Assembly (NCBI GenBank): GCA_020216965.1 | Contig: JAIWOJ010000175.1 | Location: 1-5,607 of the forward strand | Reading direction: 5' to 3' | DNA: 5,607 nt | Origin: Prosthecobacter sp. | Lineage (GTDB): Bacteria > Verrucomicrobiota > Verrucomicrobiia > Verrucomicrobiales > Verrucomicrobiaceae | Shown here: positions 1 to 5,607 of the stretch, one piece after another | Layout of the letters: each line of letters starts with the position of its first letter | How positions within the stretch are numbered: position 1 is the first letter of the stretch | Program-made: the position numbers and the translations under genes | Notes under the pieces: model-generated | Told to the model about the DNA's origin: nothing | Database searches by the model: none | What the model saw: the letters and a program-made list of their open reading frames with translations, nothing else

Positions 1-426
1 GCCCCGGCTAGCTGGGCGGTATTCCTTTTCATCACCCAGGTGCCACTTGCCAAAGATACCCGTCGTATAGCCCGCGCTACGCAGGACTTGAGCGATGGTC
101 ACCGCCTTAGGGTCCATGCGCTCGCGTTCCAGAATGGTATGCGTGACCCCGTTGCGAAACTCATGCCGCCCTGTCAGGATGGCGCTGCGTGTGGGGGCAC
201 AGGTGGGGCTGACGACGAAGTCGCTAAAGCGCACGCTTTCAGCACGCAAGCGGTCCAGGTTAGGCGTCTTGAGGATGGGGTTGCCGTGTGCCGAGAGATC
301 GCCGTAACCTTGGTCGTCTGTGAGGATGAAAAGGATGTTGGGGCGCTTGCCTGTCAGTTCAGCGAAAAGCGCGCCTGGTGCCAGAAAGAGAGAGACGAAG
401 GTGAAGAATAGAGGCAGTCGGGGCAT
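1..426 (-). CDS. Secreted formylglycine-dependent sulfatase, N-terminal part (runs off left edge)
   Basis: Translating the minus strand from ATG 426 gives 142 codons with no stop before the window edge, so the gene is partial at its 3' end. Residues 1-22 form a signal peptide: a short basic start, a hydrophobic stretch rich in L/F/V, then a likely cut after LFA. The mature part begins like alkaline-phosphatase-fold sulfatases, with RPNILFILTDDQGYGD at residues 28-43; D37 and D38 are the expected metal ligands. The sulfatase signature C-x-P-x-R is CAPTR at 76-80, where C76 would be converted to formylglycine, and GKWHLG follows at 126-131. The family hydrolyses sulfate esters, often on polysaccharides, in the periplasm or outside the cell; the substrate cannot be told from this fragment. 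An in-frame ATG at 459 would add 11 residues, but 426 places the signal peptide at the N-terminus. The gene lies 68 bases after dhaK on the same strand. No sulfatase-maturation gene is visible. Full-length relatives usually have about 450-550 residues. Confidence 0.93.
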   Translation of the reverse strand, partial: MPRLPLFFTFVSLFLAPGALFAELTGKRPNILFILTDDQGYGDLSAHGNPILKTPNLDRLRAESVRFSDFVVSPTCAPTRSAILTGRHEFRNGVTHTILERERMDPKAVTIAQVLRSAGYTTGIFGKWHLGDEKEYRPASRG

Positions 427-494
427 GGTGGGAATGGAGCCCGTCAAAACGTGTCCCATGCCCTGACTTTTCAGCGAGAATCAAGCCCGAGGTC

Positions 495-1505
495 TCACAG
501 CTTGGTGTAGCCCACGCTTTCGCAGGGCAGATCCCACAGCCGCTTCAACTCCGCATCCAGCTTGGTGATGCTGAAGCTCACCCCGGCCATCTCTTGGCAG
601 GTGACGATGTTGTCCACGATGGTCTGATGCACCTTTAGGCCGCGAGCCTCCAGGATGGGGCGCGCGGCGCGCAGCAGGATTAGCAGCTCCATCATGTGGG
701 TGGAACCCAGGCTATTCACAAAGAAGATGATTTCATCCCCGGCATTTAGCGGCAGATCATCGCCAAAGAGAATGTCAAGCATCTTGGGGGCAAGTTCATC
801 CGCCGTGCACATCGGGATCAGGCCCACGCCCTTTTCCCCATGGATGCCCATGCCAAGGCCGATCACGTCGTCTGCCAGATCAAAGGTCGGCGCGCCTGTG
901 GCTGGGATGGAGCCTGGCTTCGTGGAGACCCCCACCGTGCGGGTCATGTCGTTGGCTTTCTGGGCGATGCGGGCCAGCTCATCCAGTGTGTCCACCTGGG
1001 TGGCAGCAGCACCGGCCAGTTTGACGATAGGGACAAGGCCAGCAACGCCGCGGCGGTTCTGCTTTTTATCCGGGGGGGCTGAGGCGACATCATCATTGAT
1101 GATGACGGTTTTGACCGTGATGCCCTCATCGGCAGCCAGCTCAGCACCGATGTCAAAGTTCATCACATCCCCAGCATAGTTGCCATAGAGGTAGAGGACG
1201 CCCCTGCCACGGTTCACGGCTTGGGTGGCCTCCAGCACGATGTCTGGCGGGGGAGCGGCAAAAATATCGCCGACAGCGGCACCATCTGCCATGCCCTTGC
1301 CCACCAGGCCGTGGTAGATGGGTTCATGCCCAGCACCACCGCCGACGAGCAGGGCAGGCGCATCAGGGCGCAGGTCATTCATGACGATGGAGCGTTTGCC
1401 GACTCGGCGTGCCTTGCCATCGTAAGCCAGGACGAGCCCCTCAAACAGCTCGTCAGCGCACTTCAGGGGGTCATTGATGATCTTTTTGGCGGGGTTGGTG
1501 CTCAT
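495..1505 (-). CDS. dhaK: Dihydroxyacetone kinase subunit DhaK (DAK1 domain protein)
   Basis: From ATG 1505 the protein has 336 residues, close to the E. coli DhaK length of 356. It starts with the family-like KKIINDP (7-13). Other DAK1 hallmarks are GGGAGHEP (55-62), GNYAGDVMNF (108-117), RRGVAG (151-156) and GIHGEKG (220-226). By alignment from memory with E. coli DhaK, H222 matches the histidine that binds dihydroxyacetone covalently, and H60 and D113 match the other active-site residues, so substrate binding looks intact. DhaK binds dihydroxyacetone or a related short ketose; phosphate transfer needs a DhaL domain (ATP- or PTS-fed) in the cytoplasm. No DhaL or DhaM is visible in the window. 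The reading frame stays open up to an ATG at 1604 that shares one base with the prmC stop (TGATG). That would add 33 Ala/Pro-rich residues unlike the family, so I prefer 1505, although neither start has a clear ribosome-binding site. Confidence 0.93.
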   Translation of the reverse strand: MSTNPAKKIINDPLKCADELFEGLVLAYDGKARRVGKRSIVMNDLRPDAPALLVGGGAGHEPIYHGLVGKGMADGAAVGDIFAAPPPDIVLEATQAVNRGRGVLYLYGNYAGDVMNFDIGAELAADEGITVKTVIINDDVASAPPDKKQNRRGVAGLVPIVKLAGAAATQVDTLDELARIAQKANDMTRTVGVSTKPGSIPATGAPTFDLADDVIGLGMGIHGEKGVGLIPMCTADELAPKMLDILFGDDLPLNAGDEIIFFVNSLGSTHMMELLILLRAARPILEARGLKVHQTIVDNIVTCQEMAGVSFSITKLDAELKRLWDLPCESVGYTKL

Positions 1506-1548
1506 GGGGCGGCGGGTGGGTTGGCTTGGGTGGGAAACAGGGGCGCAA

Positions 1549-1577
1549 GCCATAGCGGGCGGCCTGCGACCTGTCAA
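1549..1577 (-). promoter_or_regulatory. Possible sigma70-type promoter for dhaK
   Basis: The minus strand carries a perfect TTGACA (1577 to 1572), then exactly 17 bases, then TATGGC (1554 to 1549), a weak match to TATAAT. Transcription would start near 1542, about 37 bases before the preferred dhaK ATG at 1505, which fits that start rather than the one at 1604. It lies in the 98-base gap after prmC and could uncouple dhaK from prfA-prmC. The -10 match is poor and the region is GC-rich, so this may be chance. Confidence 0.3.
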
Positions 1578-1603
1578 AGCAGGAAGCGCGGGGGCAGCCA
1601 GCA

Positions 1604-2452
1604 TCAGCCCAGGACGGCAGAAACAAAGCGGGGAATGCCCGCTAGGTCGGGGAAGATCTCAGGATTCTGAAAGCCATGCTCCCGTGCCATCTGCGCCGTG
1701 GCCGCACCTTGGTCATGCCCGACCTCTAGCACCACCCGTCCGGCAGGCTCCAGGTGGGCGGGGGCCTGCTCTAGGAAGCGGCGCACGATCTCCAGCCCAT
1801 CTGCGCCGCCATCCAGCGCGGTGATAGGATCACGCCGCACTTCACGGCTAAGCGTCGGCACCTCTGCCGCAGGGATGTAGGGCAGGTTTGCCACGATGAG
1901 GTGCCAGCGTCCGGGCAGTTTTTCAAAGAGATCACTACGGCGGAAGTGGAGGTTTTGCAGCCCGAGGCGTGAGGCATTCAACTGCGCAAGATCCAGCGCA
2001 TCCTCGGCAATGTCTGCCAGGGTCACTTGGGCGGTCGGCCAGGCGGCAGCTAGGGCGAGGCCGATGCAGCCTGAACCTGTGCCCATATCCAGTACCGTCA
2101 TTGGCTGGGGAGATTTCCCTGCGGAAACTTGGCGAATCAAGGTGTCCACAAGGTGCTCTGTCTCTGGCCTGGGGATGAGGGCACGGTGATCGCAAACTAG
2201 CTCATGCCCCAGGAAGTCCACCGTGCCTAGCAGGTGCTGGAGGGGGACGCCCTCTCCCCGGCGACGTAGCAGATTGCGCAGGGGCAGCAGGTCAGGCTCA
2301 TGCAGAGTCTCTTGAAAACGCAGGTACAGATCGAGTCTGCGGCAGCCCAATACATGGGCCAGCAGGTGCTCCATGTTCAGCCGTGCCTCCTCCACGCCAC
2401 GCTGTTCTAAATAGGCAGCACCTGAGGTGAGGACTTCGAGGAGCTTTTTCAT
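1604..2452 (-). CDS. prmC: Peptide chain release factor N5-glutamine methyltransferase PrmC (HemK)
   Basis: This 282-residue protein has the usual PrmC length and two-domain layout. The helical N-terminal domain (about 1-80) is followed by the linker motif IPRPETEHLV (93-102). The Rossmann methyltransferase domain has the SAM-binding loop LDMGTGSGCIGLALA (121-135), D147 as a likely SAM ribose ligand, and DPITALDGGADGL (208-220) near the end of the fold. PrmC transfers a methyl group from S-adenosylmethionine to the glutamine of the release-factor GGQ motif, which improves termination. The substrate-glutamine motif is normally NPPY but here reads NLPY (189-192); asparagine and tyrosine are kept. 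The start ATG at 2452 lies 8 bases after the prfA stop, the classic prfA-prmC arrangement, which supports both calls. The stop TGA overlaps a possible upstream dhaK ATG. No strong Shine-Dalgarno sequence precedes the start. Confidence 0.95.
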   Translation of the reverse strand: MKKLLEVLTSGAAYLEQRGVEEARLNMEHLLAHVLGCRRLDLYLRFQETLHEPDLLPLRNLLRRRGEGVPLQHLLGTVDFLGHELVCDHRALIPRPETEHLVDTLIRQVSAGKSPQPMTVLDMGTGSGCIGLALAAAWPTAQVTLADIAEDALDLAQLNASRLGLQNLHFRRSDLFEKLPGRWHLIVANLPYIPAAEVPTLSREVRRDPITALDGGADGLEIVRRFLEQAPAHLEPAGRVVLEVGHDQGAATAQMAREHGFQNPEIFPDLAGIPRFVSAVLG

Positions 2453-2460
2453 CGGTGGGT

Positions 2461-3537
2461 TTAGCGTAGCCCCGCCTCCGCGAGGCGCTCTTCTAGGTCG
2501 CTGGCCAGCAGTTTGTCTAGCATCTCTTGGATGCGGCCCTCCATGAAGGTATCCAGGCTGTAAAGCGTGAGGTCGATCCGGTGATCCGTGACGCGGTTTT
2601 GGGGGTAATTGTAGGTGCGGATCTTTTCCTCACGACCGCCGCCGCCAATCAGGGAACGGCGGTGTGCGGAATATTTCGCGGCCTCCTCCTGCTGTTTTTT
2701 CTCCAAAAGCCGGGCGCGCAGGATGTTGAGGGCTTTTTCCTTGTTTTTGATCTGACTGCGCCCGTCTTGGCAGCGCACGATGATACCTGTGGGCAGGTGC
2801 ATGACCTGCACGGCGGAGTCTGTCGTATTCACACCCTGACCTCCTGCGCCTGAGGAGCGGCAGACCTCAATGCGCACCTCGTCGGGTTTTAGTTCCAGAT
2901 CCACTTCTTCCGCCTCTGGCAGCACGGCCACCGTGGCGGTGGAGGTGTGGATGCGGCCTTGGGCCTCCGTGGCTGGCACGCGCTGCACCCGGTGCACACC
3001 GCTTTCGTAGCGCAGGCGGCGGAAGACCTCCTCCCCGCTGATTTTGACCACGACTTCCTTAAAGCCACCGACTTCTGATGGGCTGGACTCGAGGGGCTCC
3101 ACCCGCCATCCCTGGGCCTCTGCAAAGCGTGAGTACATGCGCAGCAGGTCAGCCGCGAAGAGAGATGCCTCATCCCCGCCCGTGCCTGCACGCAGCTCGA
3201 TCAGGGCATCACGACCCTCCAGGGGATCTGGCGGCACGATAGCGGCCTGCACCGCCTTTTCTAGCACGGCCAACCGCTGTTCGATCTGTGGGATCTCCGC
3301 CTGGGCCATGGCGGCAAACTCCTCATCGCCTGAGTTCACCATCTCTCGGCTGTCCTCCAGTTCACGCAGTTGTTTCTGGTAGGCTTCCCAATCTTTCAGC
3401 AGGGTGCCCAGCCGTCGATGCTCGCGGGTCAATTCCCCGGCCTTTCTTGGGTCATCGAAGAATCCTTCCTGGCCCATGAGCTCCTCCAAGAGTTCAAAAC
3501 GGGCCTTTTTCGTGCGAATGATGCTGCTGTAGTCCAT
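2461..3537 (-). CDS. prfA: Peptide chain release factor 1 (RF1)
   Basis: From ATG 3537 the protein has 358 residues, the normal RF1 length. Numbered from that start, the coiled helical domain 1 spans about 1-100. The anticodon-like tripeptide is PAT (188-190), which marks RF1 (UAA/UAG) rather than RF2 (SPF). The catalytic GGQ is at 232-234 within SGAGGQGVNTTDSAV. Both motifs fall within a residue or so of their E. coli positions. It recognises UAA and UAG stop codons in the ribosomal A site and triggers peptide release. The residue after GGQ is glycine where most RF1 proteins have histidine; I recall this variant in other phyla. An in-frame TTG at 3543 would add two residues; ATG 3537 aligns better with the family. 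The start is preceded by a terminator-like hairpin and T-run rather than a clear ribosome-binding site. prmC, whose product methylates the GGQ glutamine, follows after 8 bases. Confidence 0.97.
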   Translation of the reverse strand: MDYSSIIRTKKARFELLEELMGQEGFFDDPRKAGELTREHRRLGTLLKDWEAYQKQLRELEDSREMVNSGDEEFAAMAQAEIPQIEQRLAVLEKAVQAAIVPPDPLEGRDALIELRAGTGGDEASLFAADLLRMYSRFAEAQGWRVEPLESSPSEVGGFKEVVVKISGEEVFRRLRYESGVHRVQRVPATEAQGRIHTSTATVAVLPEAEEVDLELKPDEVRIEVCRSSGAGGQGVNTTDSAVQVMHLPTGIIVRCQDGRSQIKNKEKALNILRARLLEKKQQEEAAKYSAHRRSLIGGGGREEKIRTYNYPQNRVTDHRIDLTLYSLDTFMEGRIQEMLDKLLASDLEERLAEAGLR

Positions 3538-3540
3538 GAA

Positions 3541-3569
3541 CAAAAAGGCCGGGCGGCTTCCCTCCCGGC
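3541..3569 (-). terminator. Terminator-like hairpin with T-run directly before prfA
   Basis: Read on the minus strand, GCCGGG (3569 to 3564) and CCCGGC (3553 to 3548) form a perfect 6-bp GC stem around a 10-base loop. One C and five Ts (3546 to 3542) follow, then GTTC and the prfA ATG at 3537. This is the shape of an intrinsic terminator. It could end an upstream minus-strand transcript, or act as an attenuator or translation-blocking hairpin in the prfA leader. The T-run is short, so efficient termination is not certain. Confidence 0.5.
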
Positions 3570-3985: not shown

Positions 3986-5607
3986 ATGATGATGGCACCG
4001 TTTCCGCTCCTCACATCCCCTGCTGCCATGGTTCCTGAAATCGAAAATTTCGGCCACTTGAAGCTCTCCCGCCGGGCTGGCGGTGAGACGGTCAAGCTCG
4101 TCCGTTCACCCGAGGAATTGGTGCTGCTTGCGTTTGATACGCAGATCAAGCGCTTGGTCGAGCTGCACCTCCTGCGCGGTGGGCAGCCCATGGAAGGAGC
4201 CGCGAAGAAATCCGCTATAGACCGTGCTCAGCAGGCATCGGAGATCCGTGGCCCGACCTTCATGCGCATCCTGGAGGTGGGTGAGGACGAAGGCGTGGTC
4301 TTTTACACGAGCAATCTCAATGAAGGGGAATTCGCTACTGACTATGTGACCCGGCGCGGTGCAATGCCACCGGCCACCGTCTTCTCACTCCTCTTGCAGT
4401 TGATGGATGATGTGATGCTTCTTGGGGATCGCCATCGCTTGATGCCCAACCTGCGCTTAGACAGGGTGATGATCACGACGGTGGAAGACACCTTTCTGCA
4501 GCTCAGACTCTACGACTACGGGCTTGGCGATGCTGACCGCTCAGGCAAGGACAATTCCCGTCAAGTCCTCCAAGTCTGCCAACTGATCTTCCTCCTGCTC
4601 ACAGGCAAGCCCTACGCTGCCGGAGAAAACCCAGACCGCTACCCAGCGCTCACGGCCCTGCCCATGAGCCTGCGGACGACCCTGCGTGCCTCGCTCGCAG
4701 ATCCGCACAATTCCCCCGTCTCGATCGAAAAGCTGCGGGATGAAGTGCGTGAGGCATTCAGCGCCCTCGTCAGTAGCATCCAGGCACGCAACACACGCAA
4801 GCAGCTCGTCGTCACCCCATCCCTACAGCCGCATTCCCAATTGCAAGACCTTCTCTTGGAGGGGGTGCCTGTCGAGCGCGTCTTAGGCACCCGCTTTCGG
4901 GTCGAAGATGAGGAAAATGCCCGCCGACTGCCTTTCTCCATCCCTTGCGTCAATGTCAAAACGGAGAACCCGATCACGGTGCATCTCCTGCCGCCTTCGC
5001 GTGTCGTGGATAAGACACAGTATGAGGCCGTGCCGCTCCAGAGCTGGCGCTTTAACCCTGACAAGCATCCGAACATTCTTCGTAGCCTGAGTGTCTGGGA
5101 AAGCCCGGAATGGAGCTTCCTGACAGAGGAACGGGAGCCTGGATTCTCTCTCAGCCGACTTCTCACGGAGCGCCTCACCCTCAATCCATCGGAGGTCGTG
5201 GTGGTCTTGCGGCAGGTACAGGCCGGCATTGAGCAGGCGCTGGATTGTGGCGTGCAGCGGCTGGAACTGCACCCTTCCAACCTCTTCCTCCGCGTCGGTA
5301 AAAATGGCCCCATGCTCGTGCGGGAGCATGAGCGGCTCATGCAGAAGCGGCTAGATGCCTGGCCGCCATTTCAGGTCAAAGTGCGCGCCCACGTCACCAT
5401 GCGCCATCTCTATGAGCCACCGCTCACCGAGCCGCCTGATCTAAGCAAATTTGAGAGTGATCACCTTGCAGATCGTGAACATCGCGCCCGCGCTTTTGTT
5501 GCCTTGGCAGCCTATCTACTGACGGGGCAGCGCCAGATCGGGGATGAGCCCGTCTTTACAGAAGCCGTGCCGGAAGGCTTAGCCGCCTACGTCCGAACCA
5601 CGCTAGA
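3986..5607 (+). CDS. Tandem pseudokinase: two degenerate Ser/Thr protein-kinase domains (runs off right edge)
   Basis: The frame is open from a stop at 3965 to the window edge, giving at least 540 residues from ATG 3986 (ATG also at 3989, 3992 and 4028). Two kinase-like domains can be read. Domain 1 (about 22-260): a beta3 region FDTQIKRLVELHLL (50-63) with H61 in place of the VAIK lysine; RILEVGEDEGVVFY (94-107) like the hinge-side strands; MPNLRLDR (153-160) where HRDLKPxN belongs; DYG (177-179) for DFG; LLTGKPY (204-210); and a normal C-lobe end. Domain 2 (about 297 on): H333 replaces the lysine; HPNILRSL (361-368) is typical; RLELHPSN (425-432) replaces HRDLKPxN; EHE (447-449) replaces DFG; and LLTGQ (511-515) marks the C-lobe. 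With lysine and catalytic aspartate gone in both, phosphotransfer is unlikely; a scaffold, sensor or regulator role is inferred. No signal peptide or membrane helix is visible. GGAG (3969-3972) lies 13 bases before ATG 3986; the start could equally be 4028. Confidence 0.82.
   Translation, partial: MMMAPFPLLTSPAAMVPEIENFGHLKLSRRAGGETVKLVRSPEELVLLAFDTQIKRLVELHLLRGGQPMEGAAKKSAIDRAQQASEIRGPTFMRILEVGEDEGVVFYTSNLNEGEFATDYVTRRGAMPPATVFSLLLQLMDDVMLLGDRHRLMPNLRLDRVMITTVEDTFLQLRLYDYGLGDADRSGKDNSRQVLQVCQLIFLLLTGKPYAAGENPDRYPALTALPMSLRTTLRASLADPHNSPVSIEKLRDEVREAFSALVSSIQARNTRKQLVVTPSLQPHSQLQDLLLEGVPVERVLGTRFRVEDEENARRLPFSIPCVNVKTENPITVHLLPPSRVVDKTQYEAVPLQSWRFNPDKHPNILRSLSVWESPEWSFLTEEREPGFSLSRLLTERLTLNPSEVVVVLRQVQAGIEQALDCGVQRLELHPSNLFLRVGKNGPMLVREHERLMQKRLDAWPPFQVKVRAHVTMRHLYEPPLTEPPDLSKFESDHLADREHRARAFVALAAYLLTGQRQIGDEPVFTEAVPEGLAAYVRTTL

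What the first reader, a model, noticed from the sequence alone, without database searches (positions are those of the whole stretch)
3986..5607. Tandem pseudokinase with both active sites dismantled
One protein contains two successive kinase-fold domains, each still showing the family's landmarks (beta3 strand, HPNI or equivalent, a catalytic-loop position, LLTG in the C-lobe) while losing the residues needed for catalysis. HRD-K-N becomes MPN-R-R in domain 1 and RLE-H-N in domain 2; DFG becomes DYG and EHE. Retention of the fold without catalysis over 500 residues suggests selection for binding, as in the JAK JH2 or tandem pseudokinase regulators of eukaryotes. Bacterial proteins with two dead kinase domains are little described. 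The family assignment is motif reading by eye.
Basis: partly seen in the sequence, partly recalled or inferred. Interest (0 to 1): 0.72.

Follow-up and report, generated by a model that had tools for sequence, protein, structure and literature searches.

The report
Tandem pseudokinase of bacterial tubulin operons
A freshwater bacterium carries a protein with two predicted kinase-shaped domains that both lack key catalytic residues; in many relatives its gene sits directly in front of the bacterial tubulin genes, so it likely helps anchor or control bacterial microtubules.

The parts
3986..5607 (+). tandem pseudokinase gene (TPK), 540 codons then cut by the contig end; full-length orthologues are about 730-920 aa; likely start codon at 4028
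4043..4771 (+). kinase-fold domain 1 (residues 20-262)
4166..4168 (+). His61 in place of the beta3 Lys, D1
   Evidence: 127/127; Arg in one further 26% paralogue
4442..4465 (+). degenerate D1 catalytic loop, residues 153-160 (MPN-x-R-x-x-R)
4514..4522 (+). D1 DYG, residues 177-179; the DFG Asp is kept
   Evidence: Asp 127/127; Asn in G356 among the further rows
4883..5605 (+). kinase-fold domain 2 (residues 300-540, end of C-lobe missing in the window)
   Evidence: orthologue alone
4982..4984 (+). His333 in place of the beta3 Lys, D2
   Evidence: 124/127
5258..5281 (+). D2 catalytic-loop equivalent RLELHPSN (425-432); Glu427 here, Asp in 100/127
5360..5392 (+). most conserved segment of the family, W459-P460-x-F462...R467-x-H469, at and before/after beta8 of D2
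   Evidence: W, P, F, R 127/127; W, P, F, R kept in all groups

Best explanation
The gene encodes two successive predicted kinase-fold domains that have each lost catalytic residues, and its orthologues lie immediately upstream of btubA-btubB-bklc in 27 of the 40 genomes that hold both, so it is likely a non-catalytic membrane-anchored scaffold of the bacterial tubulin system. Shown by calls: the sequence changes, their conservation, the predicted folds, the linkage, the co-occurrence, and a TPK-Bklc gene pair in a genus without tubulin. Inferred: the N-terminal tandem heads lie in the cytoplasm (more Lys+Arg before than after the predicted helix in 113 of 118 orthologues), bind Bklc and/or Btub filaments, and the helix and the tail hold that assembly at the inner membrane. 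The conserved MES-x-GSVSDF-acidic segment before the helix would be a docking or phosphorylation site for the genome's active Hanks kinases. In the window's own clade the gene has left the tubulin locus but would do the same job in trans.
For: Fold and motif loss. Purifying selection. Linkage: TPK next upstream of btubA, same strand, in 20 of 48 genus genomes and in 7 of 8 tubulin-bearing genomes of other genera of the family; the eighth contig starts 252 bp before btubA. The block stands in 7 different upstream contexts (21 loci) and 10 downstream contexts (20 loci). Co-occurrence over 68 family genomes, incomplete ones included: both 40, TPK only 8, tubulin only 2, neither 18, Fisher p 1.7e-8; on a prfA tree, 11 independent pairs, same way 8.1, opposite 0.0, no difference 2.9, median p 0.008. 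Three genomes of genus g16 have no BtubA match but have TPK directly followed by Bklc; their Bklc falls in the Bklc clade (support 100). Against G356, g16 has PrfA 79-80% but Bklc 37-39% (ten others 54-63%) and TPK 39-40% (others 47-54%); a paralogous TPR protein shows no such drop (57% vs 45-52%). G030: btubA gone, btubB in broken fragments, TPK end and bklc intact. Topology and segment. Published: Bklc binds Btub filaments and membranes (PMC5372463, abstract and passages).
Against: In 12 genomes with both, all of the window's Prosthecobacter clade, TPK is elsewhere in the genome or on another contig; for the window's own genome linkage is unknown. TPK persists in 8 genomes without intact tubulin; in four of them (G003, G006, G010, G024) only the generic TPR paralogue and no Bklc was found, and G010's copy is interrupted. 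G013 kept Bklc alone. A control goes against the divergence argument for TPK: the 26% TPK paralogue, not tied to tubulin, is also lower in G276 and G128 (41 and 44% to G293) than in three Prosthecobacter (58-60%), a drop as large as TPK's own (37-38% vs 48-59%), so TPK's divergence in g16 may be lineage-wide; Bklc's is not mirrored. That paralogous family exists in nearly all genomes and in other families of the order, so the architecture is not tubulin-specific. Gaps of 134-265 bp in nine loci separate TPK and btubA, so co-transcription is untested. With genomes >=90% complete only, the tree test has 8 pairs, 4.8 same, 0.1 opposite, median p 0.0625. No binding data.
Confidence: 0.47

Rival explanations
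1. TPK is a general cell-envelope signalling scaffold of the MviN type that recruits phospho-binding partners at the membrane; the tubulin linkage is hitch-hiking and not functional.
For: Same layout class (pseudokinase plus membrane anchor); the MviN/Rv3910 domain 3uqc is among the Foldseek matches of both models; paralogous tandem pseudokinases occur without tubulin; TPK is unlinked in the window's clade; the TPK paralogue diverged in the g16 lineage as much as TPK did.
Against: Linkage survives 7 upstream and 10 downstream contexts; co-occurrence on the tree; the TPK-Bklc pair is kept next to each other in three genomes without tubulin.
Confidence: 0.29
2. The two domains still bind nucleotide or catalyse an unusual reaction, each keeping part of a site (DFG Asp in D1; HRD Asp and Asn in D2).
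For: Asp177 127/127; position 427 Asp 100/127 and Asn432 123/127.
Against: No beta3 Lys in either domain in any of 127 sequences; no GxGxxG loop visible in the window's sequence; D1 lacks the HRD Asp and the Asn; D2 lacks DFG; the 26% paralogues lost D2's Asp and Asn too.
Confidence: 0.12
3. TPK is a decoy or regulatory subunit that binds and tunes one of the genome's active Hanks kinases, like JAK JH2, and the tubulin link is through phosphorylation of Btub or Bklc by that kinase.
For: 18 PF00069 matches in the window's genome, 16 over the cut-off, of which 11 distinct ones have full HRD...DFG motifs; conserved Ser-containing acidic segment.
Against: No kinase-like gene was seen to recur beside TPK; neighbours were clustered and read by eye, not all identified. 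No partner kinase identified.
Confidence: 0.1

Closest known systems
MviN (Rv3910) pseudokinase of Mycobacterium tuberculosis, ActPs3 family
   Same: Bacterial Hanks-type pseudokinase domain on a transmembrane protein, scaffold for a phospho-binding partner (PMC12599244, passages); fold match 3uqc
   Different: One pseudokinase domain on a peptidoglycan-synthesis membrane protein; no tandem arrangement, no tubulin link; different motif losses (VALT / LSIDHPSR / Y--, Table 1 passage)
btubA-btubB-bklc operon of Prosthecobacter
   Same: TPK is the next gene upstream of this operon in 27 genomes
   Different: The operon is described with three genes (PMC5372463, PMC3232192, passages); TPK is not among them
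'putative serine/threonine kinase' in a figure of bacterial tubulin neighbourhoods (Yutin and Koonin 2012, PMC3349469; legend seen, figure not held)
   Same: Possibly this gene in one or more Prosthecobacter species; the legend does not say on which side or in which species
   Different: Named only in the legend; the passages found do not discuss catalytic loss, tandem domains or conserved linkage
PknB/StkP-type Hanks kinases
   Different: Catalytic residues missing; duplicated; no PASTA match in nine orthologues scanned with Pfam
JAK JH2 and eukaryotic tandem kinase-pseudokinase proteins
   Same: Two kinase folds in one chain (recalled)
   Different: In JAK one of the two is active (recalled); here neither looks active; no evidence of descent from JAK

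Membership tests
Protein kinase fold (PKL) | bilobal kinase fold in each half | tested here: met
   predicted models; hhalign
Active Hanks-type Ser/Thr kinase | beta3 (VAIK) Lys | tested here: not met
   His in 127/127 (D1) and 124/127 (D2, rest Glu 2, Gln 1)
Active Hanks-type Ser/Thr kinase | HRD Asp, Lys and Asn of the catalytic loop | tested here: not met
   absent in D1; D2 keeps Asp in 100/127 and Asn in 123/127 but has His for Lys in 122; the window has Glu
Active Hanks-type Ser/Thr kinase | DFG Asp | tested here: inconclusive
   kept in D1 127/127; replaced in D2 wherever it is placed (R-A-H by predicted secondary structure, R-E-H by hhalign)
Active Hanks-type Ser/Thr kinase | Pfam PF00069 gathering score | tested here: not met
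   24.6 bits against 31.7; 21.3-28.9 bits in 9 orthologues
Pseudokinase | fold kept, at least one canonical catalytic motif lost and the loss conserved | tested here: met
Pseudokinase | no phosphotransfer | not testable with these tools
   needs an assay
MviN/ActPs3 family | family-specific residues and domain layout | not tested
   fold match only (3uqc); layout differs
Btub system component | conserved gene linkage with btubAB-bklc | tested here: met
   27 of 40 genomes with both; not so in the window's clade, unknown for the window's genome
Btub system component | phylogenetic co-occurrence with tubulin | tested here: met
   Fisher; tree, median p 0.008; median p 0.0625 when restricted to genomes >=90% complete
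Btub system component | physical interaction or phenotype | not testable with these tools
   needs bench work

The most novel reading that the evidence does not exclude
Bacterial microtubules have an overlooked fourth core component: a membrane-anchored tandem pseudokinase that partners with the kinesin-light-chain-like protein Bklc to anchor or organise Btub filaments at the membrane, and that pair can outlive the tubulins themselves.
Probability: 0.4. Interest if true: 0.86.

Novelty: new variant of a known kind. Interest (0 to 1): 0.71.

Why it matters
BtubA/B are bacterial proteins close to eukaryotic alpha/beta-tubulin (PMC9871819, passages), and how their microtubules are placed near the membrane is only partly explained by Bklc. 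A conserved fourth gene with a predicted membrane anchor, present with tubulin in several genera, gives a direct candidate to test. It would also tie a pseudokinase to a tubulin cytoskeleton in bacteria; the review of bacterial pseudokinases that I searched for terms (PMC12599244) has no hit in its main text for tandem, tubulin, cytoskelet or Verrucomicrob.

Tried and rejected
Rejected: (a) No kinase fold or local misalignment: refuted by models and profiles. (b) The 46% paralogue as partner of a second tubulin locus: in the six paralogue loci read with flanks, no tubulin gene was found. (c) Tubulins inserted into an older TPK-Bklc pair: the trees put g16 near tubulin-bearing G356 for PrfA, TPK and Bklc, so tubulin loss fits better; but the TPK and Bklc trees are quick ones, support is 84 and 93, and the g16 branches are long, so this is not settled. 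(d) 'DFG to EHE' in D2: rejected on predicted secondary structure only. (e) Pfam and NCBIfam gave no function beyond weak kinase matches and a few weaker chance-like ones. The phylum search with an alignment scored at most 4 candidates per genome, so its 8 of 288 is a lower bound.

Led nowhere: the 2007 gene-walking paper and the 2017 mini-microtubule paper are not held, so I cannot say what they print about this neighbour. PMC7203096 is held only for its first 300,000 of 769,434 characters, where the terms do not occur. PMC1845146 has no hit for kinase or upstream. Literature searches. PDB sequence search gave only weak kinase matches (best E 0.018).

Mistakes corrected: the prfA tree had four rows on the wrong strand; one search failed; one search replaces both (the Fisher test does not depend on the tree). 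My first tally missed TPK in G020 and the linkage in G015, found by tail fragments. Two of the 12 kinase rows (L076, L077) are the same segment.

Full report
What is there. The window is the whole of contig C60 (5,607 bp) of a fragmented, 68% complete genome. Its last gene, 3986-5607, starts a protein whose first 540 residues are present; the rest lies beyond the contig end. A search scored 7,997 candidates (a cap) and found 287 proteins at E <= 0.001, of which the best 120 were listed; most have no name, and those named are Prosthecobacter or Verrucomicrobiota. Named genome records with relatives are titled Prosthecobacter, Verrucomicrobiaceae or Verrucomicrobia, apart from one MAG titled Akkermansia muciniphila. 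The most identical full-length one, P0002, is 828 aa and 92% identical. I call the family TPK (tandem pseudokinase).

What is lost and what is kept. In 127 sequences (window, the 120 listed homologues, six paralogues or relatives) the beta3 Lys is His in D1 in 127 and in D2 in 124. D1 has no HRD (Asp at that position in one 26% paralogue only); its Asn position is Arg in 116. But D1 keeps the DFG Asp in 127, as DYG or DFG. D2 has Asp at the HRD Asp position in 100 and Glu in 23, the window among the latter; Asn432 is kept in 123; the Lys is His in 122. Among the further rows, G356 has Asn for the D1 Asp and one 26% paralogue has Arg at the D1 beta3 position. This placement is inferred; the hhalign global alignment would put DFG near 446-448. 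The most constant stretch is W459-P-x-F...R467 (127/127), kept also in distant paralogues. So each domain keeps a different remnant of a site and neither has a full one. dN/dS against three relatives is 0.07-0.14 for D1 and 0.06-0.09 for D2, with dS saturated.

The rest of the protein. Of the 120 listed homologues 118 have at least 700 aa; of these 115 have MES-x-G-x-VSDF (or a close variant), 110 a hydrophobic stretch that I take for a transmembrane helix after residue 540, 105 the tail motif IRxAIxPT..E, and in 113 Lys+Arg are more frequent before that stretch than after it (5 ties). The inferred layout is cytoplasmic tandem heads, acidic linker, one helix, periplasmic tail. The MES-x-GSVSDF segment survives even in the most divergent relatives read (two of the three g16 proteins), which end at the helix.

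Tubulin linkage. In one search the next gene downstream of many orthologues proved to be BtubA, followed by BtubB and Bklc. Among 48 genomes of the genus, TPK (>= 56% identity to the window, or its tail beside btubA in G020) is in 38 and BtubA in 34. TPK is next upstream of btubA, same strand, in 20 of the 48: 18 read directly, and G015 and G020 from the tail fragment beside btubA. Among the 20 genomes of other genera in the family, 8 have BtubA; in 7 TPK is next upstream, and in the eighth (G347) the contig starts 252 bp before btubA. The block has 7 upstream contexts among 21 usable loci of 22 and 10 downstream contexts among 20 usable loci (in L038 and L196 the contig ends inside the block). 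So the block stays together while both flanks change.

Co-occurrence. Over 68 family genomes, incomplete ones included: both 40, TPK only 8 (G003, G006, G010, G024, G030, G276, G361, G363), tubulin only 2 (G005, G347), neither 18; Fisher p 1.7e-8. On a prfA tree of 62 rows, with the two outgroups and G347 left out (59 rows), 11 independent pairs that differ in TPK differ the same way in tubulin in 8.1, the opposite way in 0.0, and not in 2.9 (mean of 200 pairings), median p 0.008; pairs chosen by tubulin give 7.3, 0.0 and 3.7 of 11, median p 0.016; with the 45 rows from genomes at least 90% complete, 8 pairs, 4.8, 0.1 and 3.1, median p 0.0625. Eight of the 68 genomes are not in the tree: no PrfA match was found for G010, G021, G023 and G066, only a distant one for G065, and pieces for G025, G353 and G067. 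It is a single-gene tree.

Natural losses. Genus g16 (G276, G361, G363, the last a single 8.2 Mb contig) has no BtubA match but has TPK directly followed by a Bklc homologue. That homologue falls inside the Bklc clade against the TPR paralogue found in most genomes (support 100), next to the Bklc of tubulin-bearing G356 (93); its TPK also groups with that of G356 (84), in line with prfA (quick trees, long branches). Compared with G356, g16 has PrfA 79-80% (ten other genomes 70-72%), yet TPK 39-40% (others 47-54%) and Bklc 37-39% (others 54-63%); the TPR paralogue stays at 57% (six others 45-52%). A second control is less kind: against G293, the 26% TPK paralogue is 41% in G276 and 44% in G128 but 58-60% in three Prosthecobacter, a drop like TPK's own (37-38% in g16, 48-59% in others). 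So the loosening of Bklc where tubulin is missing stands out, while TPK's may be partly lineage-wide. In G030 btubA is gone and btubB is reduced to broken fragments between an intact TPK end and an intact bklc; the body of its TPK is on another contig. In G013 bklc alone remains, 98% identical.

Against. In the window's clade TPK is elsewhere or on another contig in 12 genomes with both. For the window's genome the question is open: its btubA-btubB-bklc lie on C285, cut inside btubA, and its TPK is cut too; G057, the relative with both that is nearest by TPK identity (81%), has them on different contigs. TPK without tubulin or Bklc exists in G003, G006, G010 and G024, and G010's copy is interrupted. 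A paralogous tandem family at about 26% identity runs through nearly all family genomes and other families of the order, so tandem dead kinases with a membrane anchor are wider than tubulin; TPK was presumably recruited from them.

How it most likely works (inferred). TPK holds two binding heads at the cytoplasmic face of the membrane. Bklc binds Btub filaments and lipid vesicles (PMC5372463, abstract and passages), and Btub tubes run parallel to the membrane, almost always in the stalk or its transition zone (PMC3232192, passages). The pairing of TPK with Bklc even without tubulin suggests that Bklc is the direct partner, with TPK as the integral anchor or organiser and the acidic Ser segment as a control point for the genome's active kinases (18 PF00069 matches, 16 over the cut-off). 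Confidence 0.47 for a non-catalytic scaffold of the tubulin system.

Prior knowledge. The operon is described as three genes. A 'putative serine/threonine kinase' is named in the legend of a neighbourhood figure (PMC3349469, legend and passages; figure not held). The 2007 paper that sequenced the flanks is not held; from memory its abstract says the environments of the operons are always different. The searches showed no analysis of this gene in the listings and passages that I saw.

Noticed in passing
G293, G347-G350, G354-G356 (L170, L194-L200): BtubA/BtubB/Bklc genes occur in 8 genomes of six genus-level groups outside the window's genus, at 79-87% BtubA identity; bacterial tubulins are usually reported from Prosthecobacter.
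   Followed up: partly
L241:5150-6931, L242:6625-8556, also G050 (L243): Genomes of another family of the order (f4) encode a 590-645 aa protein with a Pfam Tubulin/FtsZ GTPase domain (PF00091, E 7e-13 and 1e-20) and, in one, a weak helix-turn-helix match at the N-terminus; 30-32% identical to BtubA over about 250 residues. Not beside their TPK-like genes.
   Followed up: partly
L064-L066, L172, L173, L177; P0124, P0128: A second tandem kinase-like family (about 26% identity, about 780 aa) is nearly universal in the family; in D2 it has Glu at beta3 and Lys/Arg at the HRD Asp position. Distant relatives (f3, f4) sit in other families of the order.
   Followed up: partly
L028, L057-L059, L061-L063: A third, 44-47% identical TPK paralogue occurs in 8 of 48 genus genomes, beside a PIG-L-like and an esterase-like gene (names by reading), not beside tubulin.
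   Followed up: partly
L191 (G030), L190 (G013), L025/L049 (G010): Natural decay: btubB remnants with TPK end and bklc kept; bklc alone kept; TPK interrupted in a genome without tubulin.
   Followed up: yes
L020/L041 (G032), G017:C440 (L162), G012:C74: TPK is split into two ORFs near its tail in G032; G017 holds a second partial TPK copy; btubA of G012 is interrupted.
   Followed up: no
   Followed up: no
L221-L240: A kinesin-light-chain-like TPR paralogue of Bklc (about 300 aa, 30-40% identity) is present in most genomes of the family, tubulin or not.
   Followed up: partly
window 1-3543, - strand: Upstream genes, by Pfam: sulfatase (cut), Dak1 (dihydroxyacetone kinase subunit), PrmC methyltransferase, release factor 1; ordinary housekeeping and catabolic genes.
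   Followed up: yes
L036:6179-7720 and equivalents (cluster c2): A 500-540 aa protein with no Pfam match and a TM-like stretch by reading lies next upstream of TPK in the commonest linked context; not identified.
   Followed up: no
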